This document shows, in pieces, positions 3,195-16,065 of a DNA stretch of 37,716 bases. Origin of the DNA: Chrysochromulina tobinii (lineage: Eukaryota; Haptophyta; Prymnesiales; Chrysochromulinaceae); contig JWZX01002446.1 of assembly GCA_001275005.1 (NCBI GenBank), positions 1 through 37,716 on the forward strand, given 5' to 3'. Every line of letters starts with the position of its first letter. Position 1 is the stretch's first letter. The translations under genes were made by a program, and so were the position numbers. The notes under the pieces are model-generated. The model did no database searches. It was given only the letters and a program-made list of their open reading frames with translations, and was not told the DNA's origin.

Positions 3195-5867
3195 ATGATG
3201 GGCCCGGGCGCGAATGCGGCCCCGCTAATGGAGCGCGACTGGGGTCACTCGGGCGAGAACCTCTCCGCTCTCGGCGGCGGCGAAAAGGCGACCGTCTCGA
3301 CTCGAGCGACGAGCTATACGGGGCAGCTCGTGGCGTCGATCGTGCTGATCATCGCGATCGGGGTCGAGGACAAGAGCACGCAGTACTGGGGGTACACCAT
3401 CGCCGTGGGCGCCGTCTCAGCCGCCATTGCTCTCACCGAGCTGCTGCTCCTTGCCTTCCAGAAGTCGGACAAGATTCTGTTCGTCGCCCCGGTGCTCGGC
3501 GACATGACCGAGAGCGGTGTGCTCGCGCTCTTCCTGCTGGTGTGGTGGGGCGTCGGGACGTACGTGATCACCTTCATCGCGCCCTTCACAACCACCTCTA
3601 ACGGCTACTTTGCCGCCTGGATGGGCTTCGTGTGCAGCGTCGGCAGTGCCGGCGCCACCCTGCCGCGGCTTGCGGCGTCTGGGATCGCTCAGTTTTCGAG
3701 TACGAGCCTGATCGGTCTTGGCGTGTGCGCGGTCGTGGTCGCCCTGGAGCTGGGCGACGAAGGTGGACTCTCGCACCAGATGGTCTACGGCATGATCGTG
3801 TCCGTGCTCACCTTCTCGCTGGTCGCGGTCACGCTGCTCCAGGAGCTTGCAGGCGCGCCGCTCGATGCAACGCTCGCTCGCTCGCTGCACATGGTGATCA
3901 CGTTGCTCTGGGGGTTTGCCGCCCTGTGGCTGACCAGTACCGGACCTTTCGCGGCAACGTCCAATGCCTACTTTGCCCTCTGGGCTGGGCTCGTGTGCGC
4001 GAGCCGATTGGTGCTTGATGTGCAGAAGGCGTCCGGCGTCGTGGCCGCCCTCGCCAACGAATCGTTCGCCGCGCTGTGGGGGCAGTTCGTGGCGGCGAAC
4101 GTGCTGCTCTTGGCGGTGAGCGCCCTCGACGTTGAGAACACCGTGAACTGGGGGTATGCCCTCGCAGTCGCTATTGTGGCCGGGGGACTTGCGCTCATCT
4201 CCGCTCTCCTTTTCGAGAACCCGGCGGGCCGGTAAGTACCTGCCTCAGATCTCCGACTGATCTCCCTCTGATCTCCTTTTCGAGAACCCGGCGGGCCGGT
4301 AAGTACCTGCCTCAGATCTCCGACTGATCTCCCTCTGATCTCCTTTTCGAGAACCCGGCGGGCCGGTAAGTACCTGCCTCAGATCTCCGACTGATCTCCC
4401 TCTAATCTCCGAGTGTGCCTCCCTGTGTGCAGCTTGCCCCTCGGTAGCTTCCCCCTCGGCCCCGGGCGCTACGGCACGCTCGCCCTCAACGACATGCTCG
4501 CCCTCTTCTTGTTCACATGGTGGGCTGTGGGTACCGGGGTCCTGACCATCCAAGGCCCATTCGTCGATACGGTCTTCAAGGCCAATGCTTACTTTGCCCT
4601 GTGGACTGGCTTTGGGTCTTCACTGCTTGGGATCGGGCTCACTCTCACTCGCACGCAGGTGAGTGCGTCTGAGTGCCGCTGAGTGCCGCTGAGTGCCGCT
4701 GAGTGCCTCTGAGTGCGTCTGAGTGCGTCTGATTGCGTCTGATTGCGTCTGAAACTTGAGCCCACGCTCTCGCGCACGCAGCAAGAGGCAGCCGCCAACA
4801 CGGCGCACTTTTACAGCGCGTGCCTCGCTGTCTGCTCCGTCGTCGTCATGCTCTCCTCGTGCCCCGAACTTGCCAATGGCAACATCGGGCGCCGACCGGC
4901 CATCTACGCCATGGTCGTCGCGAGCTTCACGCTGAGCCTCTGGCTGAGCGAGTTGTGGACTGCCGCCTTTCGGCCGCAAGCCATCGGATCCACACCAAGG
5001 ATCAAGCGCTTCCTCGCTGTGGTGCGATTCGTACAGTGGGAGTGCTCGGATTGCCTCGTGATTGCCACTGATTGGCTTTCTGATTGCCTCCCTCATCAGG
5101 TGCGATTCATACAGTGGGAGTGCTCTGATTGCCTCTTGATTGCCACTGATTGGCTGTCTGATTGCCTCCCTCATCAGGTGCGATTCGTGCAGTGGGAGTG
5201 CTCGGATTGCCTCGTGATGGCCACTGATTGGCTGTCTGATTGCCTCCCTCATCAGGTGCGATTCGTACAGTGGGAGTGCTCTGATTGCCTCTTGATTGCC
5301 ACTGATTGGCTGTCTGATTGCCTCCCTCATCAGGTGCGATTCGTACAGTGGGGCATCGTGGCCTCGTGATTGCCACTGATTGGCTGTCTGATTGCCTCCC
5401 TCATCAGGTGCGATTCGTACAGTGGGGCATTGTGGCCTCGTGGACAACCTTTCGCGGCCCGTTTGACCTCACGGGCAACGGCTATTTCTTCTCCTGGGCT
5501 GGCGTCGCCTTCTCCGCGTTCCTGCTGCTCTCAAGTTTCCCACAGCTGAGCGGGCCCCTCGAGCGCCTTCGTGACGAGGTGGGCAAGTCCCCACACCCAC
5601 CACTGATGCATGCTAGAGCTTCTCTGATCGCACGCTGATTGCCTCCCTCATCAGGTGGGCCATTCCCCACAGCCGCCACTGACCCTCGAGGGGGGGCTTG
5701 CGGACATGGGGAGCGTGTACCCACCCCCAGCGTACCCGCCGCTGGGGGTGGGCGCCATGGTGGGCACCCAGCCACTCGACGCGTCGTCCATCACGACGCT
5801 TCCCGCCATCGGGGGTGCCGAGAGCTTTCCCACAAGCGGTTCGGCGGCCAGTGGCACGTGGGAATGA
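3195..5867 (+). CDS. Internally repeated polytopic membrane protein, five exons with repeat-filled introns
   Basis: Inferred exons: 3195-4231, 4433-4658, 4782-5021, 5408-5578, 5655-5867; all phases agree. The product has many hydrophobic helices and a module repeated at least four times, ending in a motif like GPFxxTxNGYFAxWAG (APFTTTSNGYFAAW, GPFAATSNAYFALW, GPFVDTVFKANAYFALW, GPFDLTGNGYFFSW). I do not recognise a named family with known function; similar W/PF/NGYF modules occur in proteins of algae with secondary plastids. The tail after the last helix is soluble, proline-rich and ends GTWE. Intron 1 has three copies of a 67-bp unit, each with a GTAAGT donor. Intron 2 is made of 10-bp repeats, intron 3 of ~78-bp repeats, and intron 4 begins with a copy of exon 5's start. 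ATG 3195 and ATG 3198 are adjacent; the first is used. Unspliced reading would stop at 4235. Confidence 0.68.
4210..4410 (+). repeat. 67-bp tandem repeat x3 spanning an exon end and its 5' splice site
   Basis: Three consecutive near-identical 67-bp units begin at 4210, 4277 and 4344. Each holds the last coding bases of exon 1 (TTTTCGAGAACCCGGCGG) followed by GTAAGTACC. The polytopic-protein gene therefore has three equivalent donors, at 4232, 4299 and 4366. Use of the second or third would add in-frame or frameshifting copies, because 67 is not divisible by 3 and each copy brings a TAA just after the donor. Confidence 0.93.
4659..4781 (+). repeat. Intron 2 of the polytopic protein, composed of TGAGTGCCGC / TGATTGCGTC 10-bp repeats
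   Basis: The intron opens with GTGAGTGCG and runs through about nine 10-bp units (TGAGTGCCGC, TGAGTGCGTC, TGATTGCGTC) before ending CGCGCACGCAG. The last exon bases before the donor (CTCGCACGCAG) nearly repeat the acceptor end of the intron, as a local duplication would leave them. Confidence 0.8.
5022..5407 (+). repeat. Intron 3 of the polytopic protein: ~78-bp tandem repeat, five units
   Basis: Units begin at 5022, 5100, 5178, 5256 (78 bp each) and 5334 (74 bp). Each starts GTGCGATTCGTACAGTGG and ends CTGATTGCCTCCCTCATCAG. The downstream exon at 5408 starts with the same GTGCGATTCGTACAGTGG, so every unit junction reads CAG|GTGCGA and could serve as both donor and acceptor. Removing 5022-5407 restores a continuous frame (RFLAV joined to VRFVQW). 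Confidence 0.9.
5579..5654 (+). repeat. Intron 4 of the polytopic protein, with boundary duplication
   Basis: The intron starts GTGGGCAAGTCCCCAC and exon 5 starts GTGGGCCATTCCCCAC, a 16-base imperfect direct repeat across the intron. Its last 34 bases plus the next 9 exonic bases match intron 4 of the PPPDE gene (14226-14268, minus strand) at 41 of 43 positions. Confidence 0.82.
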
Positions 5868-6534
5868 GGCGCGCGGGCTCACGCGGGTATGGGGAGGGAG
5901 GAAGAGACCCCTCCGAGGCACTTGCATGCAAACGTGGGGGGGGGCGAGGGATGCCCATTAAATAGAAGGACAATGCGGCGAGTTAGGCGGAACGATGGTG
6001 CACGGAGCGCGGCGAGAGTCTCTGGCTGGTCTCTGGGTGGATGGAATGAAATCAGCTATAGGGGGATCTTCGGATCCATCTCTAATCTCACGAATAACGA
6101 AAGTACGAAACTGCAAACTTGAAAGCTCGAAGCTGCGGGGAATCCCCGTTCCCCCGTCCCCGGGACGCATGCCGGGACGCCCGGGACGCGACGGGTCGCA
6201 GACCCACGCCAGTCCCTTTCGAAGACACACTTCTGGCAGACGATCGAACGTCATGCCGCGCCTGTATCACTGTCCCGCTCGGCTCTTACATATGGATCTC
6301 ACTGGTGAGGTTACAGCCGGTGGGCGCCACCTCTGCTCCACCTTCGTGCACTGGGGCGCAACTTCCCACATGGTCGAATCTTATACGAACATGCGCGAAC
6401 AATCAATGCGCCCCGCCAAGCACCCGTCAACCGTTCTGTCTCTGTGTCCAACGCACCCGTATGCCCAGTCGGCGTCACCTGCGCCCAGTCGGCGTCACCT
6501 GCGCCCAGCCGGCGTCACCTGCGCCCAGTCGGCG
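5868..6534. other. Convergent intergenic region, no supported gene
   Basis: This stretch lies between the ends of the polytopic-protein gene (plus) and the cation-channel gene (minus). I found no coding frame with recognisable content. It includes a G-run near 5935-5945 and, at its right end, the 20-bp repeat array at 6463-6552. Some of it is presumably 3' UTR of both genes, and further channel exons could lie here. Confidence 0.5.
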
Positions 6535-6552
6535 TCACCTGCGCCCAGCCGG
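6463..6552 (-). repeat. 20-bp tandem repeat with repeated CAG|GTGACG donors
   Basis: About 4.5 copies of a 20-bp unit, read on the minus strand as GTGACGCCGACTGGGCGCAG. Every junction is CAG|GTGACG, a plausible 5' splice site. The array sits exactly at the predicted end of the channel coding region, so it may be either the start of another repeat-built intron or the C terminus and 3' UTR. Confidence 0.9.
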
Positions 6553-8353
6553 CGGTCGGTTCTTCTCGGTCTCGCGAGACGACCGGGAATCTACCCGGGA
6601 ATCTCCACGAGATCGCTCGGAGTAGACGAGTACGCCTTTGTCTTTGATGAGCTGATCGAGCTTGACTTCCATGGCCATACACCTGTGGCGCAATCAGCGG
6701 CAATCAGACGCAATCAGACGCAATCAGACGCAATCAGACGCAATCAGACGCAATCAGAGCCATGCACCTCTCGACGGCCCTCTCCGTGCGCATGGCCCGC
6801 TGATCCATGCGCTCGACGAGTCGGAAGAGCTGCGCCTTGGTGTAGTCTGTCGGAGGGACCGTCGTCGGGGAGGGCTCTGCTCGGTTTGGATCCATCTCTT
6901 CATTTATTGAGGAGATGAGTTGCGTCACCTGCTCGTCCGTCATCTCGATTGACGATGGAGGCTCGGAGAACTTGTCGAGAAGCACCGCGACGACGACGTT
7001 GGTCATCACCATGCCCGTCAGGATGATGAAGGAGACGAAGAAGAAGCTCACGAAGATTGCGCTCCGCTGGTAGAGGCCAAACGTGAGTGGCCTTGCGAGC
7101 GCCTCAAAGTTCGAGTCGCCCGTCATCGTCTCGAAGAGCGTGTACATCGCGCGCGAGTAGGTGCCGTAGTACTCGATGCCGTTTGTGTAGCCGCGCGGCG
7201 TCGTCGAGTCCACAATGTGCCTGCTGCTGCCGAGGTCGTCTGTCATGTAGGTGCCGTTGATGCCAAAGTCGCGGAAGAGCTCAACGGCGAGGATGGCGTA
7301 GATGCAGTAGAAGATAAAGAGGATCACGAAGGCGTTCGCGACGCCCGGAATGGACGCGAGCAGCGCCATGATGATCCTGTTCAGCGACTGGATCCGCTTG
7401 AAGAGGCGGAAGACGCGGAACGCTCGTAGCAGCTTGAGCTGAGAAATGGGGCCTGAAACGCCTGCCAACAGGATGACGCCCACCCCGGTGATGATCGTGT
7501 CGAAAACGTTCCACCCCGAGCGCCAAAACGCTGGGCCGAAGCCGTAGCCGTACAGGTTGGCCAGCAGCTCGACCAGGAAGATGGCATTGAACGCGGTGTC
7601 GAATCCGTCCCAGAGCGGCTTCATCTTCATCTCGTTCGGGTCCGGATCGTACTCCTTCTCGAGGATGTTGACGATGAAGTTGCCGATGATCACGGCTGCG
7701 ACGCTCCAGACGACGATGGGATTGGTGTAGATGGCTCGCACCTCCCGTTGGTAAGGCAGGGGCTTGTTCTTGCCCCGGAGGGAGTCGTTCCACCACGGCT
7801 CACGCACTAGCCTGACGTCGATCGTGGCCTTGAGCTTCGCAAACCCGAACACGTCCACCGCATCACAATGGCCGTCGGAGTCCACGAGTCCCTGATTCTC
7901 ATTCAGGAGTGGGCCACACTCAGCGATCAACCGCCTTGCCTGGCGATTCGTCACGCCCCGTTGAAACTCCTTGAGGCATTGCACCATTTCCTCCGCTTCA
8001 ATGACGCCACTGTGATCCTTGTCGATCTTATTAAAGGCCTTGTAGACGTCCAGCGCGATGCCCTCCGGGGGTCCTTTCTTGATTTTCCCCCTGGCCCTCT
8101 CATGGGCGGCGCGAGTGGCGGCGGCGGAAGACACTCTTGATGCAAACGTAGCAAACATGTCCAAAGAGGGCATCGCCTTTGAAGGCTCCCCATTTTTGCG
8201 CGCAAGCACTCTGCGACTGTGCAGGCGATATCTGTTTTCGATGGCTATGGCGGCCTCCTCCTCGCTCATTACCCGCGGCTTCCGCACTTGGGGAGGTTCC
8301 TTGAAACTCACCTCGTCGGATGGGCGCTTCTTCCGCTCTCGGAGCCGCTCCAT
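6535..8353 (-). CDS. Single-domain voltage-gated cation channel with N-terminal EF-hand
   Basis: Inferred exons 8353-6768 and 6682-6535, giving about 577 residues. The cytoplasmic N terminus carries an EF-hand loop DKDHSGVIEAEE (111-122; ligand positions 1, 3, 5 and 12 are acidic or Ser). Six hydrophobic segments follow from ~212 to ~460. S4 is QLKLLRAFRVFRLFKR (305-320) with arginines every third residue. The pore loop is TLFETMTGDSN (405-415), before S6 ILTGMVMTNVVVAVLLDKF. One six-helix domain would assemble as a tetramer, as in bacterial NaChBac-type or protist single-domain channels. A Ca2+ or Na+ flux role in flagellar signalling is inferred. Coiled-coil-like sequence follows S6. Intron 6767-6683 has donor AG|GTGCATGG and acceptor CAG|GTGTATGG. 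Unspliced reading ends in repeat-encoded residues at 6734. The terminal exon may splice again at 6540. Confidence 0.8.
6691..6760 (-). repeat. 10-bp tandem repeat (CAATCAGACG) x7 inside the channel intron
   Basis: Seven consecutive units on the plus strand (CAATCAGCGG, CAATCAGACG and so on, ending CAATCAGAGC). On the sense strand this reads CTGATTGCGT repeated, the same word found in the introns of the polytopic and PPPDE genes. It occupies nearly the whole 85-bp intron. Confidence 0.93.
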
Positions 8354-8572
8354 GCCAAACCTTTACCAAAAGTGCCGAAGATGGCAGCTTGCAACGCCTA
8401 AATATGCCAAAAACATGAGATTTCGCTGAAAAGGCAAACCTTAAGCGGCGCGTCGTTTGCGGTGGTAGGCCCCAAGGGGGGTCACTGCCAATGAGAGAAT
8501 TCCTACAGATTCCTACGTCAAGTTGTCTGGACTTCAAGATACGCTTGTCGAGGAAGCCGCCGGCAGTGAGGC
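8354..8572. promoter_or_regulatory. Divergent intergenic region between the channel and bestrophin-like genes
   Basis: Only 219 bases separate two opposite start codons. The region is more AT-rich than its surroundings near 8390-8450. I see no defined promoter element; the assignment comes from gene orientation. Confidence 0.3.
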
Positions 8573-10276
8573 ATGGCTCGGTGCAGCCTATTGCTCGTGA
8601 CCGCAGCGGCGGCGCTGCAGCCACTGCCACTGCACACGCCGCTGCGGACATCCGCGGCGCCGCGCGTCATCTGCTTGCGCGAGAGCCCGTGGATGTCGCC
8701 CATCACTGTAGAGGCGCCCGGACTCAACGGAGGCGACCTCTGGGCGGGCGCTCGCGGCTCGGACGAGGAATTCGAGTACGCCATCTCGGAGGCCATGAGC
8801 ATGACCATCACTGCCCCAATCATCCCACAGTTTTATCCCCAGAGGAGGTGGTTGTGGCGGAAATGGCGAGGGACGATCTTACCGCGCGTGCTGCCACGCG
8901 AGGTCGCTTTCAACGTCGGCTTCGCCATCGCGTGCGTGCTACTCGCACGCTTGCCGGCCACGGTCGCCGAGGCGCCGGCCGCCGCGCAGATCCTGCGAAC
9001 GATCTCTGGAAATCTGAGGACGGTTGACAAGGTGTGGCTCCTCACGAGCGGGCTAGTCTCGTTCACACTCTCCTTCTTCCTCACGCAGTCGTACGCCTTC
9101 TGGCGCTCGGTGTACTCGAGCACACGCAAGGTGCAGGGCCGCCTCAACGACATCGGGCTGCTCTGTGCCGGCGCGGCCGAGCGCGACAGCCGCGGCGAGT
9201 ACACCGAGAGCGCAGAGCAGTTGCTGAGCGTGCTCGGCCGGTACGTGCGCCTTTACTCGATGATGCTCTACAGCAGCTGCACCACGCGCTTCGCCGTGTT
9301 GCAGACTCCGCGTGGCCTCGGCGCGCTCGTGGACTGCGGCGCGCTGACCACCGCTGAGCGCACCGCGATGCTGCAGACCGGTATGGGCTCCAATGCGGTG
9401 CTTATGTGGATGTCCACACTACTCAACTCGGGGCTGAGTGACGGGCGCCTCGGAGGCTCCCCTACGGGAGGACAGCCTCTTGGTCTACAGCTCGCTTTCC
9501 AGCAGTGCTTCACCGAGCTCAGAGGCTGCAGTGCGTCGATCGCCGATGAGCTCACCGGCCGCATGCCGCTCGCGTACACGCAGCTGGTCCAGATCATGGC
9601 AGACCTTCTGATCGCCGCCACCCCCTTTGCTCTCCTCCATTCCGTGGGAGGCGTCGGCGCCGTCGTGGGCACCGCGCTGGTCACCTTCTTCCACAGCTCC
9701 ATCCTCTACCTGGCCAAAATGTTCCTCGACCCACTGAACAATGACCAGTACTCGAGCGACATGGGGATCAACGTCGCCACGCTCATGCAGGAGACGAACC
9801 TGGGCAGCGAGCGATGGCGCAAGTCCGCCCAGTGGGTCCCTGAAGCGACGCTACCCCGCGACAGGTCGCGTACCAATGAGGAGGAAGAGCGATGGCGAAT
9901 GGGGGGTGGACGGCTAGCGAGCAGCAGAACTAATGAGGGGGGCAATCAGGTGCAATCCGATGCAATCCGGTGCAATCAGGTGCAATCAGAGGGGGGTGGA
10001 CGGCTAGCGAGCAGAACGGATGCCGCCACCGCCCCCAACCTCGCTGGCGCCGCCAACGCAGAGCCAACGCCGACGCCAACGCCGCCAACGAGTGCATCGG
10101 CGCCGGCGCCGGCAGCGGCCGACAGCTTGAGCGGCATCCAGCTTCTTGGCAAGGGCAACGTGCCGCTCGAGCTCTTGGGACTGAGTGCTCTGCCTGCCGA
10201 CTGCTCCGCCGACTGCTCCGCGGCTCCGGCACCGATGGAACCACCGATGGAACCACGGGGGGGTGGGGCGTCGTGA
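8573..10276 (+). CDS. Bestrophin-like membrane protein, likely plastid-targeted
   Basis: Frame of 567 residues. The N terminus (MARCSLLLVTAAAALQPLP) looks like a signal peptide followed by a Ser/Ala/Arg-containing transit-like region. Hydrophobic helices lie around 111-132, 153-170 and 345-385. Between them, LTQSYAFWRSVYSSTRKVQG and later FLDPLNNDQYSSDMGINVA fit the shape of bestrophin-type (RFP-TM) anion channels, where a conserved dPF/DG block follows the last helix. Thylakoid bestrophins (VCCN1-like) would explain plastid targeting. The match is by pattern only. The C-terminal 130 residues are low-complexity, including a stretch (9901-10014) with a 24-bp direct duplication around CAATCAG repeats, which is probably an in-frame intron rather than protein; both readings keep the frame. 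The start is the first ATG, and the frame ends TGA at 10276. Confidence 0.5.
   Translation: MARCSLLLVTAAAALQPLPLHTPLRTSAAPRVICLRESPWMSPITVEAPGLNGGDLWAGARGSDEEFEYAISEAMSMTITAPIIPQFYPQRRWLWRKWRGTILPRVLPREVAFNVGFAIACVLLARLPATVAEAPAAAQILRTISGNLRTVDKVWLLTSGLVSFTLSFFLTQSYAFWRSVYSSTRKVQGRLNDIGLLCAGAAERDSRGEYTESAEQLLSVLGRYVRLYSMMLYSSCTTRFAVLQTPRGLGALVDCGALTTAERTAMLQTGMGSNAVLMWMSTLLNSGLSDGRLGGSPTGGQPLGLQLAFQQCFTELRGCSASIADELTGRMPLAYTQLVQIMADLLIAATPFALLHSVGGVGAVVGTALVTFFHSSILYLAKMFLDPLNNDQYSSDMGINVATLMQETNLGSERWRKSAQWVPEATLPRDRSRTNEEEERWRMGGGRLASSRTNEGGNQVQSDAIRCNQVQSEGGGRLASRTDAATAPNLAGAANAEPTPTPTPPTSASAPAPAAADSLSGIQLLGKGNVPLELLGLSALPADCSADCSAAPAPMEPPMEPRGGGAS
9901..10014 (+). repeat. 24-bp direct duplication flanking GCAATCAG repeats (probable in-frame intron)
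   Basis: The 24-base segment at 9901-9924 recurs at 9991-10014, 90 bp apart. Between the copies lie five variants of the decamer GGTGCAATCAG/GGTGCAATCC. Removing an interval such as 9906-9989 (GTGGAC...CAATCAG) keeps the frame. It has the same boundary-duplication design as the introns of neighbouring genes, but the exact splice sites cannot be fixed from sequence. Confidence 0.75.
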
Positions 10277-10908
10277 CGGGCGCGACGGCTATACCACGGC
10301 TGGACATCACGGGCGCCATGATGAGCATGGGCGCCATGATGAGCACTGGTGGACTGCTTGCGCTCGCATGGCGCCCATCATGGCGCCTGAGTTTGGACGC
10401 AATCAGAGGCGCCTGAGTTTGGAGCCCACGAGCGCACTCTGCGACAGGACAGTAGCGCATGCCCGCGAGCAATGCCGTGCTCGGCATCATAGAGGCTAGG
10501 GTAGCCGCCCGCACGGGCGCGGACCGACGAGGAACGAAGGCGCACAGAGATCACACCATCTGGCCCATCTCAAGCGTGCTAGAATAGCCACATGTGAGTA
10601 GCACATGGGGTCGGCCTGATGCATCAAAGGCAAACGATGCCATGGTCACCCTGTGTGCTGGGAGAGACCGACCCTCACTAGCGAAATTGAGTAGCCCGAG
10701 CGAGCGAGTACTCAGTACTTGTGTTGACCGAGGGGAGCGGAGCCGTCCTTTGAGACGGTGGTGTGGAGTGAGCGCGGGGGGACCGCGATGAAACTGACTG
10801 ACTGACTGACATGGTGGGTCACGCGCTGCACCATTTTACTTAGTAACTCTGCATAGAAACTCAGCGCTCGGGGGTTTTCATGTTTCGAGCGAAATCAAGT
10901 CAATTCTC
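10277..10908. other. Intergenic region with short direct duplications, no supported gene
   Basis: This stretch contains a 17-bp sequence duplicated 18 bp apart (10311-10345) and a 16-bp sequence at 10382 repeated at 10408 around a GCAATCAGA word. It also has a CACATGTG palindrome at 10589 and a short GACT repeat at 10794-10810. The part near 10850-10908 presumably contains the promoter and 5' UTR of the next gene. I see no coding frame with recognisable content. Confidence 0.5.
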
Positions 10909-11721
10909 ATGAAGCTCCATTACGCTTTGCTTATTGCCGCACTCGCCGTGGCCGCCGCGCAGGACGATCTGGCCTGGCACGAGAGGGCGAAAAAGGCCGC
11001 TGAAGACGCCTCAAAAGCTGTCAAGGAGGCCAACGATAAGGCCTCACAGGCGTTTGTCGAAAGCGGCGCGAAAGCTAAGCTCAACGAGACTGCAAGGCAC
11101 GCTCAACGAGAAGCTCAACGAAACTGGGTGTTCCTGACGGAGGTGAGCGATAAGGTGGCTGCAAACGCGGAAGATGCCGTGGAGAGGCGCATGTTCGACC
11201 TGCAGCAGCAGGCCTTCAACTTCTTTAAGCTCAGCGACGAGATGATCAAAACCTTGGAAGAGATGGCGTGGAACTTGTTGCAGATTGCCATCCTGCTGCT
11301 GGCGACTCGCTACTTCTCTGCAGACTTGATGCTCCTCATTTTGGGCATCGTGCTCCTCTCCGGCTCCGGCCTGATCACATGCTTTCTCAAATTTGTTTGG
11401 TTCTTGCTCTGGCTCGCGGCGATGGCGCCGCAAATCTTCCTTCTCTTCCTCTTCGTCGCGCTCTTCGTGCGATCGCGCACGCGGGGCGTGCTGATGAGGG
11501 CGTGCGGCATCGAGGACGACGCTCTCTCAAAGGTCTCCGGCACCATGTCCGACGCCTGCTTGGACGCCTGGAAGCTAGCGGCGTCTAAAACGACATTCAT
11601 CAGGATCGAGGACCTTGGGGACAACTCGAAGGATGCGGCGCTCGACCCGGCGATGGCGACGCGGCTCAACGAGATCGAGGCCAAGATCGACGAGCTGGCC
11701 AAGCGAGTGCGCGTGCCGTGA
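10909..11721 (+). CDS. Secretory-pathway coiled-coil membrane protein, function unknown
   Basis: Frame of 270 residues. The N terminus MKLHYALLIAALAVAAAQ is a clear signal peptide with cleavage probable near residue 17. Residues 25-120 are charged, Ala/Lys/Glu-rich and heptad-like (coiled coil). Strongly hydrophobic segments at about 122-137, 140-158 and 161-190 follow, ending in an RSRTR positive stop. The C-terminal ~75 residues are soluble and end in another short amphipathic helix (LNEIEAKIDELAKRVRVP). I do not recognise a family. Endomembrane or plastid-envelope location is inferred from topology only. No intron is needed. The sequence around 11085-11125 repeats CTCAACGAGA/GCTCAACGA three times, a small local duplication within the coding region. 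Confidence 0.65.
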   Translation: MKLHYALLIAALAVAAAQDDLAWHERAKKAAEDASKAVKEANDKASQAFVESGAKAKLNETARHAQREAQRNWVFLTEVSDKVAANAEDAVERRMFDLQQQAFNFFKLSDEMIKTLEEMAWNLLQIAILLLATRYFSADLMLLILGIVLLSGSGLITCFLKFVWFLLWLAAMAPQIFLLFLFVALFVRSRTRGVLMRACGIEDDALSKVSGTMSDACLDAWKLAASKTTFIRIEDLGDNSKDAALDPAMATRLNEIEAKIDELAKRVRVP

Positions 11722-12097
11722 ACATGGGTGCAAAGGGGGCCGCCACAGTGGGCGATCGTCACAGCGCGTAACGGCTCGTTGTTCGGTGTTGCGACGCCGA
11801 CGGTCGTGCTTTGTGCACTCGGAGGACACGAACCGACATGTGTAGCACATGTAATTGCTCATAATCGCGCGTCCTAAGCCTAGCGCTACGGTCCTCCTAC
11901 AGGAACGGACTCGACTCCCTAGTACCTGGCGTGGACCCGCCGGGCGCAGCGGCCGGCGCGCACAGCAGCCGAGCCGGCAGCCCATCGACCGGCCGCGCCC
12001 TCGTTACGCAGGACTTCCCACTACGGTGCCCCGAGAGAAGAGGACGACCGGGATAGAGGGTCAAGAAGCGACTGGTTTACCGAAATACTGTCTATGC
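11722..12097. other. Convergent 3' region between the coiled-coil and V-ATPase genes
   Basis: No coding frame with recognisable content. Two ACATGT hexamers at 11836 and 11847 form the short inverted-repeat-like sequence ACATGTGTAGCACATGT. The region must contain both 3' UTRs. Confidence 0.45.
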
Positions 12098-12863
12098 TCA
12101 CGCCTTGGAGGCGAGGATCAGGCCGACGATGAGTCCGTACAAGCCGAGCGCCTCGGCGAAGATGAGGATGAGCACCATGCCAACAAAGAGTTTGGGCTGC
12201 TCCGCCGCCGCTCGCGTGCACGTGTCGCCGACAATGCCGATCGCCAGGCCAGCCGCGAGGCCACTCAACCCGCACGCGAGCCCGCCACCGAAGTGCGCCA
12301 TCGCCGAGCTGCGGGCACGCGGAACGTGAAGCGCGACGGTTGGCCGGGTCGCGAGCAGGCGTCGTGGGGGCGGACGGCAAGGGCACGCGGGCACGCATGG
12401 GGAGTATGTGGAGCCAAGGCGAGGGAGGTCTGGGGTGGGCGTGGCCTGGCGCGTACAACATGCCGTACGCTGGCCGGCCCTGCTCGACGCCCGATACGGC
12501 GTTCGCGATAATCACCGCGATGATCAGGCCGTAGATGCCCAGCACGCCCGCCATGACAACCTGCACAGGCGCAGCATCACGAGCACGCGCACTGCTGAGA
12601 CACTGCGAGTCCTTGTCGGCCATTACGAGAGAGATTTGGCGCGAAGGGCACCATCCACTGGCAGCACACACCGGCACAATGCTCTTCATTACGAGCTCAG
12701 GCTTGCCGACGCCGAGTGCGGAAATGCCCATACCGGACTTTCCCGTGCCGTACGCGGCACCCAGATTGGAGAAGATGAGGGCAAACGCCGCGCCCATGAA
12801 CCCGAGCAAAGGCGCGTTCATGTCGTAGTACTCCATCTCCTCGATGGTCAAAGGAGCAGGCAT
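12098..12863 (-). CDS. V-type H+-ATPase proteolipid subunit c
   Basis: Three inferred exons (12863-12672, 12560-12457, 12308-12098) give a 168-residue, four-helix proteolipid, the usual length for eukaryotic V-ATPase subunit c. It forms the rotating membrane ring that carries protons in acidifying vacuoles and endomembranes. Diagnostic segments are [16 protein letters not shown] in helix 1-2, [18 protein letters not shown] starting exon 2, and [19 protein letters not shown] in helix 4, whose glutamate is the conserved proton-binding residue. Intron 1 (12671-12561) has GTGTGT...GTGCAG. For intron 2, several GT donors give the same phase; the one after ATGTT (intron 12456-12309) aligns best with the family (AYGMF joined to SAMAHF). 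Both introns lack tandem repeats or boundary duplication, unlike those in adjacent genes. The start follows the short N terminus [14 protein letters not shown]. Confidence 0.95.
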
Positions 12864-13431
12864 GGAAGTCGCCCGAGGAGAGCCTTTCACACTTTCTCAG
12901 TGGCTGTGAACACGCGGAGAAGCGACAAAAGCGCACGCCTCGAGAAATGAACACTTAAGGGGGGCAGCACGAATGCCTACATGTACCAAGGAGGAACCCT
13001 CCGTCCTCACATGACGAGTCTCGGGAGGACCTTCAACTCCATTCTTTGCGTCAAATCCCCGTTGAGCATGTGACTCCCTTACTTTTACGAGCGACGCATT
13101 CGATTCTTTGCATGCGATGCACTCGGAGTACATGAGGATGTGACACATGTCGAATTACATTGTACTCCTACCGCCTAGCTCGTTCCTCTGCCTGCTCTCC
13201 TTACGTACTCTACCATGCTGTCGCGCACTACCGTGTACCAGACCGATAATACTGCATACTCCTAGTGCGCGACGGAACTCTCTAAGTCTGATAGCTCGCA
13301 AACAAGTTTCGAAATGTTCGGTTGATCATGATCGCTGTGTCGCGAGAGCAGCCAGGGGCGCGCCCCGCGTGTGCCCGGAGCGTGCCTGCCGTGCGCCGTC
13401 TTCCGTCTACTGAGAGCGCTCTCCCCGTCTC
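12864..13431. other. Intergenic region upstream of the V-ATPase c gene
   Basis: It contains the promoter and 5' UTR of the minus-strand V-ATPase gene, and on its right the possible end of the PPPDE gene. It has a TACATGTA palindrome at 12978 and an ACATGT at 13145. It is relatively AT-rich around 13070-13330. No gene was found. Confidence 0.45.
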
Positions 13432-16065
13432 TTATGCCTTGCGCGTTCTCGTGCTCCGCCATCGATTCCAACGATCCCGAAGACCGATGGGCGGCTCGCA
13501 CCCTTCATCGTCCTCCCCCGATGATGACCCCCGCTGATGAGCCCGATGATTGCGCCTGATTGCCACCGATGTGCGGCTCGCACCCATCATCGTCCTCCCC
13601 CGATGATGACCCCCGCTGATGAGCCCGATGATTGCGCCTGATTGCCACCGATGAGCGTTTTCGCACCCTTCATCGTCCTCCCCCGATGATGACCCCCGCT
13701 GATGAAGCCGGTGATTGCGCCTGATTGCCACCGATGAGCGGCTCGCACCCTTCATCGTCCTCCCCAAACGCCTCGCTACGGCCGTTGGCACGCGGCGAGT
13801 ACTCGCCGTCGTAACGGCCATACCCATGCCCAGCTCCCAGCGCGGCCACCAGTCCTAACCCTGATCGTCGGGGCTCCGTCCATGGCGCTCGATACGGCGC
13901 CACGCGGCACGGGTCCGTACGCCGCGGCGAGCGCTCACCATGGCGTTCGCTCGCTGTCGAGGGCGCCGTCGCATCTGCGGTCGATAGTTCACTGTGGCTA
14001 CGCGCCGTATCGAGCGCTCTCGCACCCAGAGTCGCCTGAGAGGCGTCGTATCGAGCACCCAGAGTCGCCTGAGAGGCGTCGTATCGAGCACCCAGAGTCG
14101 CCTGAGAGGCGTCGTATCGAGCACCTAGAGTCGCCTGTGTGGCGTCGTATCGAGCGCTCGATACGGCGGCGCATGGCGGCCTCGAGTCGATGCCGGAGAA
14201 GAAGCGGAGCAGCTCGGTCGAGCGGATGACCCACCTGATGAGGGAGGCAATCGGCGTGCGATCAGAGAGGCAATCAGAGAGAGCATGACTCGGATGACGC
14301 ACGAGGGCGGTGGTCGATGAGGGAGGCAATCAGAGAGAGCATGACTCGGATGACGCACGAGGGCGGCGGCTGCACGCCGAGCACGCTCGCGGCGACGAAG
14401 GACCAGTGGTGGCAGTTGTGCTCGAGGACGTCGTACCTGATGAGGGCGGCCATGAGCGAGGCCATGAGGGAGGTCATCAGCGAGGCGATTGGGGAGGTCA
14501 TCAGCGAGGCGATTAGGGAGGTCATCAGCGAGGCGATTGGGGAGGTCATCAGCGAGGCCATGAGGCAGGTCATGGGCATACGAGCTCGCAGGCCATTCGG
14601 GTGCCATTCGGATTGGGGAGGTCATCAGGGAAGTCATCAGCATCATCAGCGTCATCAGCGTACGAGCTCGCAGGCCATTCGGATGCCATTCGGATTGGGG
14701 AGGTCATCAGGGAAGTCGTCAGCATCATCAGCGTCATCAGCATACGAGCTCGCAGGCCATTCGGGTGCCATTCGGATTGGGGAGGTCATCAGGGAAGTCG
14801 TCAGCATCATCAGCGTCATCAGCGTACGAGCTCGCAGACCATTCGGGTGCCATTCGGATTGGGGAGGTCATCAGGGAAGTCATCAGCGTCATCAGCGTCA
14901 TCAGCGTACGAGCTCGCAGGCCATTCGGATGCCATTCGGATTGGGGAGGTCATCAGGGAAGTCATCAGCGTCATCAGCGTCATCAGCGTACGAGCTCGCA
15001 GGCCATTCGGGTGCCATTCGGATCAACTTCTCGTGAGAGGCGGCCGCGGAGAGCACACTGCGGCCGAGGAGGAGCTTGCAGCGCAGCGGCAGCGTCGCCC
15101 GCCTCTCCTCGTCCTCGTAGTACGGCACGTGCCGAATGACTCCGGAGCCGTGGCAGCTCGCGATGTTGTCAAAGGTGTACTCGATGCCCTGCACAGGATG
15201 CCCGGGTGGCACATCACGCGTCGAGTTGAGCGCACATGAGGATTCGTCATCAGAGGTCATCAGAGGTCATCAGAGGTCATCAGAGGTCATCAGAGGTCAT
15301 CAGAGGTCATCAGGAGGCAATCAGAGGCCATCATCACCTGGATGAGGATGCCCGAGTGGTACACGCCGATGCCCAGCCAGTGTGCGCAGAACGTGTTGCA
15401 CGGCGCGGAGAGGTCGTACCTGCGGGATGGGGTCGCCGTGCTGAGCACTTGCACGCCGCGCAGAGCACGCGTGGCACGGCGCGGAGAGGTACGAATTCGA
15501 ATTCATAGACGTACAAGGTCAGGTAGACATGTGGTGAGTCGAGATGTTCCCAGGGAACTCCCGGGAGGAAGGAGAGCACGCCGCCCTCGCAGGAGGGGAC
15601 CGGCGAGATCTTGCACTTGGCCGGCTCGGCGCCGACTGGCCGCACGCCCTGCGGCATTCGCGCCTCGATGGCCATCCGGAGCATCGAGCCCGTCCTCTTG
15701 AGCGGCGGCGCGGCGCTCGGCGGCGCGTGGGTGCTGCCGTGGTGCCGGTTGCGCCGCTCGACCCAACTCGAGGACCCGCTGCACTCGCAGTCGAACGCGG
15801 AGCTGCCGTGCACCTTCGGAGCGCGCTTGTTCCGCCGCACGAACCAACTCGAGCTGTTCATCGCTGCAAGCTCCTTGGGCGTCATTGTTTCACTGGCGCC
15901 GCTGATGAGGCCACGGTCGCGCCATGCCTGCACGACCCATGGGACGCCAGCATCCGAGTCTTGCCGCAAGTTCTCGACGCTCTTGCTCAACTTTGTGCTG
16001 GGTATCTTGCTGCTCTGCGCCGAGGAGCACGCCGCCGTGGAGATAGGATTCCTTTGCTCGGCCAT
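13432..16065 (-). CDS. PPPDE/DeSI-type thiol isopeptidase, five or six exons with repeat-built introns
   Basis: Inferred exons: 16065-15515, 15419-15338, 15188-14992, 14436-14359, 14234 to about 13670, then possibly a last short exon ending 13432; phases agree through exon 5. After a ~170-residue N-terminal extension comes a PPPDE domain: VYLTLYDLSAPCNTF, GIGVYHSGILIQ (catalytic His ~205), GIEYTFDN, LLLGRSVLSAA, and SSYDVLEHNCHHWSF (catalytic Cys ~285). Family members (DeSI-1/2) remove SUMO or ubiquitin from proteins. The N terminus has no obvious signal, so the protein is probably cytosolic or nuclear. The C-terminal exon contains an 11-residue repeat (ARYDASQATLG) and then low-complexity sequence. 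Unspliced reading of exon 5 stops at 13670. Every intron except intron 2 shows GTNNN repeated at the next exon start. Confidence 0.75.
13500..13775 (-). repeat. 82-83 bp tandem repeat at the 3' end of the PPPDE gene
   Basis: The landmark TCCTCCCC recurs at 13511, 13593, 13676 and 13758 (spacing 82, 83, 82). Each unit contains GCAATCAGG, CATCAG and a GAGGACGATGAAGGGTGCGA-like block that is also coding in exon 5. Because the period is not a multiple of 3, unspliced reading shifts frame in each copy; a sixth intron is likely but its ends are ambiguous. Confidence 0.9.
14030..14150 (-). repeat. 33-bp coding tandem repeat (ARYDASQATLG x ~4)
   Basis: Four near-perfect 33-bp units, in frame within exon 5 of the PPPDE gene, encode an 11-residue repeat ARYDASQATLG (first copy ARYDATQATLG). 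Being a multiple of three and following PPPDE homology directly, it is probably translated. Confidence 0.85.
14235..14358 (-). repeat. Intron 4 of the PPPDE gene: duplicated donor unit and shared introner-like 3' end
   Basis: The sense strand starts GTGCGTCATCCGAGTCATGC at 14358 and repeats it from 14302. The intron ends GATTGCCTCCCTCATCAG, and exon 5 opens GTGGGTCATCCG, so the donor sequence is copied downstream of the acceptor (11 of 12 bases). Bases 14268-14226 match the 3' end of intron 4 in the polytopic-protein gene at 41 of 43 positions. Confidence 0.85.
14437..14991 (-). repeat. Intron 3 of the PPPDE gene: 82-bp tandem repeat plus 24-bp repeat
   Basis: The block CGAGCTCGCAGGCCATTCGG occurs at 14581, 14663, 14745, 14827, 14909 and 14991, exactly 82 bp apart. 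Each unit copies the last ~30 bases of exon 3 and its donor (sense GAGCTC|GTACG). Exon 4 starts GTACGACG. From about 14446 to 14575 a different 24-bp unit (GAGGTCATCAGCGAGGCGAT) is repeated about four times. The intron ends GCCGCCCTCATCAG. Confidence 0.92.
15189..15337 (-). repeat. Intron 2 of the PPPDE gene with CAGAGGTCAT decamer array
   Basis: The intron runs GTGATGATGG to CTGTGCAG on the sense strand. Six perfect copies of CAGAGGTCAT lie at 15251-15310 on the plus strand, next to a GGCAATCAGAGG word. The downstream exon does not repeat the donor here. Confidence 0.85.
15420..15514 (-). repeat. Intron 1 of the PPPDE gene with duplicated exon-2 start
   Basis: The sense-strand intron contains GTACCTCTCCGCGCCGTGCC followed by a CGCGTGCTCTGCGC block. 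This nearly copies the beginning of exon 2 (GTACGACCTCTCCGCGCCG, then CAACACGTTCTGCGC). The donor is TT|GTACGT and the acceptor GCAG|GTACGA; the splice restores LTLYDLSAP, the expected PPPDE start. Confidence 0.8.

What the first reader, a model, noticed from the sequence alone, without database searches (positions are those of the whole stretch)
5579..14358. Introns of two unrelated genes share a 43-nt 3' end: an introner-like element
Bases 5621-5663 (intron 4/exon 5 of the polytopic-protein gene, plus strand) and 14268-14226 (intron 4/exon 5 of the PPPDE gene, minus strand) match at 41 of 43 positions, ending across the acceptor CTCCCTCATCAG|GTGGG. The genes are unrelated and on opposite strands. 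Intron 3 of the polytopic gene ends with the same GATTGCCTCCCTCATCAG. Shared intron ends in unrelated genes are the hallmark of dispersed intron-creating elements (introners). Such elements are known in some algae, but this tandem-repeat form is unfamiliar to me.
Basis: partly seen in the sequence, partly recalled or inferred. Interest (0 to 1): 0.88.

Follow-up and report, generated by a model that had tools for sequence, protein, structure and literature searches.

The report
Introns that copy into new genes
In this alga's genome, pieces from the ends of existing introns appear to have been copied into the coding parts of unrelated genes, each time with a short duplication of the landing site that lets the new piece be spliced out, so that new introns could arise from old ones.

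Summary
The match is real: 41 of 43 bases, ending across CATCAG|GTGGG. It belongs to a large dispersed family: the 18-mer GATTGCCTCCCTCATCAG has 991 exact copies in the 53-Mb genome, reversed control 0; 799 of 991 are followed by GT or GC. Typical cases are X-E-X: a copy of the downstream exon start (X, 14-50 nt), an array of CTGATTGCCT-like units (E), then exon X. Removing one X+E restores the gene. AG|GT lies in register in both X copies in 30 of 66 catalogued cases, against 0-11 at shifted registers. Spliced FtsZ and L-asparaginase align with known proteins across such introns. Two inserts carry sequence of another gene: the asparaginase intron holds 24 nt of a gene on contig C395 plus its E, 58 nt identical; the FtsZ intron shares 70 nt with one on C1396, 7-9 nt of it C1396's own duplication. 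So resident introns seed new ones. The introner reading is partly right: no discrete transposon was identified, and template switching during break repair fits somewhat better. Splicing is inferred; no RNA-seq was available.

The parts
5579..5654 (+). Intron 4 of the polytopic-protein gene (GT...CATCAG), the finding's first copy
   Evidence: spliced reading frame; direct repeat
5579..5606 (+). X copy 1: intronic duplicate of the downstream exon start, supplies the GT donor (24 of 28 identical)
5607..5654 (+). Insert E: TGCATGCTAGAGCTTCTCTGATCGCACGCTGATTGCCTCCCTCATCAG, branch-point-like CTGAT units (branch-point reading recalled, not tested) and acceptor
5655..5682 (+). X copy 2: start of exon 5
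5022..5407 (+). Intron 3 of the polytopic gene: five tandem X-E units of 74-78 nt, each ending GATTGCCTCCCTCATCAG
4659..4781 (+). Intron 2: 10-bp unit array (TGAGTGCCGC/TGATTGCGTC) between CTCGCACGCAG and CTCGCGCACGCAG
4232..4432 (+). Intron 1: 67-nt repeats of exon end plus donor plus CTGATCTCC units
14235..14358 (-). PPPDE gene intron (the finding's second copy); X copy 1 GTGCGTCATCCG at its start, exon GTGGGTCATCCG after it (11 of 12, score 9, below the threshold of 10 used for counting)
14437..14991 (-). PPPDE gene intron with 82-nt unit array; donor GTACG, exon starts GTACG (5 nt only)
15189..15337 (-). PPPDE gene intron with (CTGATGACCT)n array
9901..10014 (-). Another X-E-X in the window, 24/24 identical X copies around CTGATTGCAC units; no AG|GY in register
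13483..13765 (.). 82-nt unit array downstream of the PPPDE gene, apparently not in an intron

Best explanation
New introns in this haptophyte-like genome are made by copying the 3' part of a resident intron (a run of CTGAT units, which look like branch points, plus pyrimidines, often ending CATCAG) into an exon, with duplication of about 14-50 bp of target. Because one X+E unit is excised, the gene is restored whenever AG|GY falls in register in the two X copies: either the insert brings the AG and X begins with GY, or X itself contains AG|GY. Shown: the X-E-X anatomy, the register, restoration of conserved proteins, dispersal, and transfer of donor-gene sequence in two cases. Inferred: that they are spliced in the cell. 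Inferred mechanism: repair of a staggered break, in which the broken strand pairs by a few bases (AG|GTxx) with an intron-exon junction elsewhere and copies back into that intron, then rejoins; later unequal exchange multiplies the X-E unit.
For: Dispersal: 991 exact 18-mers, control 0; 799 of 991 followed by GY; a 42-mer with up to 3 mismatches at 11 places on 6 contigs. Direct repeats: 26 of 46 unit clusters score 13 or more against about 0.4 expected from swapped flanks; 23 of 48 acceptors score 10 or more against 18 of 318 control probes; in both sets some are tandem arrays. Catalogue of 66 X-E-X, median X 24 nt, 28 with identical X copies. AG|GT in register 30 of 66 against 0-11 at other shifts. 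Frame choice: exact excision scores best in 23 of 30 AG|GT cases, 6 of 25 without AG|GY, chance 1/3 (90-nt flanks). FtsZ spliced aligns to bacterial FtsZ, E 1.6e-97, with no gap at the first junction, and to relatives' FtsZ; asparaginase, E 6.3e-80. Donor tags: C395 to asparaginase, 58 nt identical of which 24 are C395's X; C1396 to FtsZ, 70 nt. Unit number differs, one against two, between near-identical copies on C1363 and C1926.
Against: No RNA-seq. With GC donors allowed the register contrast is weaker: 40 of 66 in register against 1-27 at other shifts. 26 of 66 catalogue cases have no AG|GY in register, some plainly not introns. A simple open-frame test did not discriminate (18 of 65 spliced against 19 and 20 for shams). 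Two of four 5'-segment searches found no donor (against 73, 74). One of the four 42-mer places read, on C1532, has only a 9-nt repeat (score 6) and no clean frame. The asparaginase tag also has an unread match with 2 mismatches on C449. The right-junction microhomology is only suggestive (P 0.044 for the two firm pairs, 0.004 for four; null pairs not independent). Only 24 of 66 catalogue cases come from stretches not picked for the 18-mer.
Confidence: 0.7

Rival explanations
1. Target-primed reverse transcription: excised intron RNA, or a SINE-like RNA with this 3' end, is copied at a nick by LINE machinery, giving variable target duplications and 5' truncation.
For: Constant 3' end and variable 5' end of the 18-mer inserts; X about 14-36 nt in most cases; 26 RT-domain matches in the genome.
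Against: By the rule, 24 of 40 splice-competent cases have AG|GY inside X (20 after setting aside those with CATCAG before both copies), and many of these inserts end within the array rather than at CAG (listing). Donor and target share 3-6 nt past the CAG, which excised intron RNA lacks, but this is statistically weak. No LINE 3' end was read.
Confidence: 0.2
2. Non-autonomous DNA transposon introners with target-site duplication, as described in other algae.
For: Dispersed copies carrying a 3' splice site with the 5' splice site from the duplication, as in PMC9860276 Fig. 2B (legend).
Against: Duplications of variable length 14-50 nt rather than a fixed 3-9; no fixed 5' end; donor-gene sequence inside inserts.
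Confidence: 0.08
3. Old introns whose interior expanded as minisatellites; similarity reflects splicing constraint plus slippage, and the direct repeats are chance or tandem duplication of exon pieces.
For: Arrays clearly expand (one against two units); tandem duplication across an intron-exon boundary can make an intron (PMC4974935, abstract).
Against: 58- and 70-nt identities between unrelated genes with donor-gene sequence; direct repeats in register with AG|GT; FtsZ, a gene of bacterial descent, is interrupted.
Confidence: 0.1
4. Assembly artefact at repeats.
For: A fragmented draft (2253 contigs) rich in repeats.
Against: X copies have diverged in 38 of 66 cases, and conserved proteins are recovered by removing the extra copy.
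Confidence: 0.02

Closest known systems
Introners (Gozashti et al. 2022, PMC9860276; abstract, sections 7, 8, 15, 17, 23 and passages read)
   Same: Dispersed sequences that create many introns; 3' splice site carried and 5' splice site taken from the duplicated target, as in their Fig. 2B; an introner family is reported there for a Chrysochromulina sp. (TARA MAG)
   Different: Their text speaks of 3-9 bp duplications and, in that Chrysochromulina sp., 4 bp with the 5' splice site carried; here 14-50 nt, unit arrays, no fixed 5' end, donor-gene fragments. Families rich in short repeats were filtered out there (section 17).
[quoted passage not shown] potato case PMC4974935, abstract)
   Same: AGGT-bearing duplicated exon segment supplies splice sites; duplication across an intron-exon boundary explains the X-E-X-E-X arrays
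   Different: Here an insert lies between the two copies and, in the two traced cases, comes from another gene's intron
Intron gain in double-strand break repair (Daphnia, PMC4202315, abstract and passages; PMC11782384, abstract)
   Same: Direct repeats at the two ends of new introns, attributed to staggered breaks
   Different: In Daphnia the repeats shared by neointron and exon are 4-12 bp, and the passages seen name no recurrent insert family; here the repeats are mostly longer and the insert family recurs
Intron transposition (concept, reviewed in PMC3443670, passages)
   Same: An intron gives rise to an intron in another gene
   Different: By reverse splicing a whole intron would move without duplicating the target (my reading of the model); here only its 3' part moves, with target duplication

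Membership tests
Introner | Many similar introns at unrelated positions in one genome | tested here: met
   991 exact 18-mers, 799 before GY; 42-mer on 6 contigs
Introner | Similarity running to both intron ends (criterion of PMC9860276 section 15) | tested here: not met
   3' ends shared, 5' ends differ: where X is found, the intron begins with its own gene's X
Introner | Not low-complexity (section 17 filter) | tested here: inconclusive
   Many are unit arrays, but segments of 53-70 nt that are not simple repeats are shared
DNA-transposon introner | Fixed short target duplication | tested here: not met
   14-50 nt, median 24, with a floor of 14 set by the search
DNA-transposon introner | Terminal inverted repeats | not tested
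   No systematic search made
LINE/SINE-type insertion | Mobilising element with matching 3' end | not tested
   RT domains exist, their 3' flanks were not read
Tandem-duplication intron gain | AGGT in the duplicated exon segment | tested here: met
   AG|GT in register in 30 of 66; for scale, AGGT in 9% of random windows of the same lengths
Tandem-duplication intron gain | The two copies adjoin, with no insert | tested here: not met
   Inserts of 28-141 nt between copies; the catalogue excluded pairs with less than about 15 nt between them, so adjoining copies were not counted
Spliceosomal intron | Removal from mRNA | not testable with these tools
   No RNA-seq; FtsZ of relatives labelled as transcripts lacks the first segment

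The most novel reading that the evidence does not exclude
Introns in this genome are self-propagating through splice-junction microhomology alone: because so many 3' ends read CAG|GT and exons contain AG|GT, a broken exon end pairs with the intron-exon junction of another gene and copies that intron's branch-point array, so splicing signals themselves guide intron spread without transposase or reverse transcriptase; each new intron can keep a fragment of its parent gene, giving a readable pedigree.
Probability: 0.4. Interest if true: 0.92.

Novelty: new variant of a known kind. Interest (0 to 1): 0.8.

Why it matters
Where new introns come from is an old open question, with few cases whose parent intron can be named. 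Here two parent-daughter pairs can be named, because a piece of the parent gene travelled along, and the landing-site duplication shows how splice sites arise. A survey that filtered out repeat-rich candidates (PMC9860276 section 17) would probably have passed over such introns, so the kind may be commoner than known.

Tried and rejected
Open-frame test of excision against excision shifted by 1 or 2 nt: not discriminating (18, 19 and 20 of 65; unspliced 1 of 65); replaced by the codon-score frame choice, whose codon table was trained on long frames of the same stretches. Sense-over-antisense coding score around 44 clusters: upstream flank 35, downstream 26, both 24; weak. First acceptor scan with TCATCAG alone in the twenty stretches: 88 acceptors, 14 with a unit nearby. 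Search for the motif in viral contigs: 0 hits, twice. Searches for donors of polytopic intron 4 and of an L038 intron: only themselves. Polytopic intron 3 from a C1363-like donor was considered but rests on 5 nt (AGTGC), and the C1532 copy shares part of it, so it is not counted as firm. Pfam on ten spliced proteins, nine made from ten of the 40 translations picked by eye plus the polytopic protein: 4 of 10 reach a cut-off, and those matches cross the junction (junction positions); two are below cut-off; four have none, the polytopic protein among them. Literature searches on template switching, microhomology and Chrysochromulina with introner failed to run, so absence from print is not claimed beyond the searches that ran (one search returned nothing). 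Supplementary tables of PMC9860276 could not be read. The species name is inferred: 53.15 Mb and 63.5% GC in the sampled stretches resemble Chrysochromulina tobin, 59 Mb, 63.4% (PMC4580454, passages); not proven.

Full report
Observation. The two segments exist at the stated places and match at 41 of 43 positions, running from inside each intron across CATCAG into GTGGG of the exon. Both intervals behave as introns: excision leaves a 628-residue frame in the polytopic gene (introns 4232-4432, 4659-4781, 5022-5407, 5579-5654) and a Peptidase_C97 domain at 2.1e-18 in the PPPDE gene (introns 15337-15189, 14991-14437, 14358-14235), whereas two pieces read on into the introns give no family hit and a hit of E = 0.022. 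Five homologues of the polytopic protein that reach its later part (P0004-P0007, P0009; 37-56% identical) align across all four junctions; there are short gaps near the first two, and after the fourth the tail is poorly conserved and about 13-15 residues longer here. The other four of the nine hits stop earlier.

Genome context. The genome has 53.15 Mb in 2253 contigs and the sampled stretches 63.5% GC; this resembles Chrysochromulina tobin (PMC4580454, passages seen), and named close FtsZ relatives include the haptophyte Prymnesium, but the species is not established. The sample is the first 10 kb of twenty contigs taken at steps from C20 to C770, without regard to the motif. TGATTGCC occurs 77 times in these 200 kb, its reversal never. 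The 18-mer has 991 exact copies genome-wide, and 799 of 991 are followed by GT or GC; of the roughly 100 places listed there I count 20 with GC. In held sequence, 40 distinct copies are followed by GT in 26 and GC in 5. A 35-base piece of the finding's segment has 62 matches with up to 3 mismatches.

Anatomy. Many introns of this kind begin with a copy of the exon that follows them. Among 46 clusters of three or more units in the twenty stretches plus the window, 26 have a flanking direct repeat scoring at least 13, against about 0.4 for swapped flanks; clusters in reversed sequence: 0. The clusters came from 8 of the 20 stretches and the window, so the distribution is uneven, and some of the 26 are tandem arrays. 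Beside 48 acceptors of the 18-mer type, 23 have a repeat scoring 10 or more, five of them tandem arrays; control probes 18 of 318 (the controls were drawn from the same loci). A catalogue of X-E-X cases (at least two units, spacing up to 160, no third X) holds 66; X is 14-50 nt, median 24 (14 is the search floor), 28 pairs identical. Of the 66, 24 come from stretches not picked for the 18-mer; a few entries overlap or are arrays rather than introns.

Splicing logic. Excising X+E restores the target only if AG precedes and GY begins at the same place of the two X copies. That holds with GT in 30 of 66; with the donor shifted by 1 to 12 bases either way it holds in 0-11. With GC allowed too the contrast is weaker, 40 against 1-27. 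AGGT is in 9% of random windows of the same lengths. Sorting the 40 AG|GY cases: acceptor from the insert 14, AG|GY inside X 24 (8 of them GC, weaker), donor from the insert 2; 26 of 66 have none. Four of the 24 have CATCAG before both copies and may be arrays. A codon-score test asked which of three joins is best: exact excision in 23 of 30 AG|GT cases and 29 of 40 AG|GY cases at 90-nt flanks (AG|GT 22 of 30 at 60, 23 of 30 at 120, 19 of 29 at 150), but 6 of 25 cases without AG|GY (5, 8 and 7 of 25 at the other lengths); chance is one third. A plain open-frame test failed to separate true from sham excision.

Conserved genes. FtsZ on C107 (L051) has two such introns, the first a three-unit array whose first X copy is only partly repeated. 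Spliced, it matches bacterial FtsZ at 1.6e-97 with no gap at the first junction, DFAD|VRAVM. Of ten FtsZ relatives aligned, nine run through that junction without a gap, three of them labelled as transcripts (P0011, P0014, P0020), and the tenth, a genomic frame, ends there; after the second junction (SFD|VPPEAV) only P0010 keeps the same residues and the other tails diverge. Since bacterial genes have no spliceosomal introns (established knowledge), the first was gained after the gene's bacterial past. L-asparaginase on C19 (L002), spliced, matches L-asparaginase I structures at 6.3e-80, with a two-residue gap a few residues after the junction. Of ten spliced proteins given to Pfam, four reach a cut-off and those matches cross the junction; two are below cut-off and four have no hit.

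Who copies whom. A 42-base segment, with up to 3 mismatches, is at 11 places on 6 contigs. Four of these contigs were read besides C107 and the window. C1363 and C1926 carry nearly the same gene piece, with one unit in one and two in the other and a 22/22 identical X. C1532 has only a 9-nt repeat and no clean frame. The FtsZ insert and the C1396 intron share 70 identical bases, and the 25-mer GAACTCCGCCAGCTGTCTGATTGCC was found nowhere else in the genome with up to 3 mismatches; its GAACTCCG follows C1396's own exon within its repeat (after a 2-base insertion) and not FtsZ's exon, 7-9 nt in all because TG is common to both. In asparaginase, the insert holds TGACGGAACTCGAAAGGATCCGGA; the core of that string stands three times on C395, the last time outside the intron array and running on into unrelated sequence, and 58 bases are identical up to CATCAG. 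C395, or a relative of it, is therefore the source side; a further match with 2 mismatches on C449 was not read. Two other 5' segments gave no donor: donors for 2 of 4 tested.

Mechanism. Donor and recipient exons share a run past the CAG: 6 (C395/asparaginase), 3 (C1396/FtsZ), and, for two looser pairs, 4 (C1363/polytopic intron 3) and 5 (the finding's own pair). Random pairs of GT-starting exons reach 6 in 0.9%. The sum test gives 0.044 for the two firm pairs and 0.004 for four; the pairs in the null are not independent, and the four were found partly by eye. This, and inserts that end inside the array when X holds AG|GT, favour a template that extends past the intron, so copying at a break primed by the junction itself, over reverse transcription of excised introns. 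I hold the copying of intron 3' parts with target duplication at about 0.7 and the junction-primed route at about 0.4.

Comparison. Introners (PMC9860276) are the nearest kind; a Chrysochromulina sp. there has a family with 4-bp duplications that carries its 5' splice site. Repeat-rich families were removed there by eye (section 17). Tandem duplication and break repair (PMC3443670, PMC4974935, PMC4202315, PMC11782384; passages or abstracts) each explain part. I saw no description of donor-tagged introns in the searches that ran (listings, and passages of a few papers); four further searches failed.

Noticed in passing
L055 and L057 (contigs C1363, C1926): Near-identical gene pieces whose intron has one X-E unit in one and two in the other; alleles, haplotypes or young paralogues.
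   Followed up: partly
window 6694-6762 against 4684-4752: A (CGCAATCAGA)n array at the 3' end of a long minus-strand frame (ion-channel-like by eye, not searched) is the inverse of the array in polytopic intron 2 (69 nt, 84%).
   Followed up: no
P0003 and P0046: Near-identical frames from other assemblies end with different residues where the introns begin here, so intron sequence seems to vary between closely related genomes.
   Followed up: no
window 12561-12671, minus strand: A gene that looks like V-ATPase subunit c (by eye, recalled) has what looks like an ordinary intron without units or repeat, so not all introns are of this kind.
   Followed up: no
one search list: About a fifth of the listed places have GC rather than GT after CAG, suggesting that GC-AG introns are common here.
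   Followed up: partly
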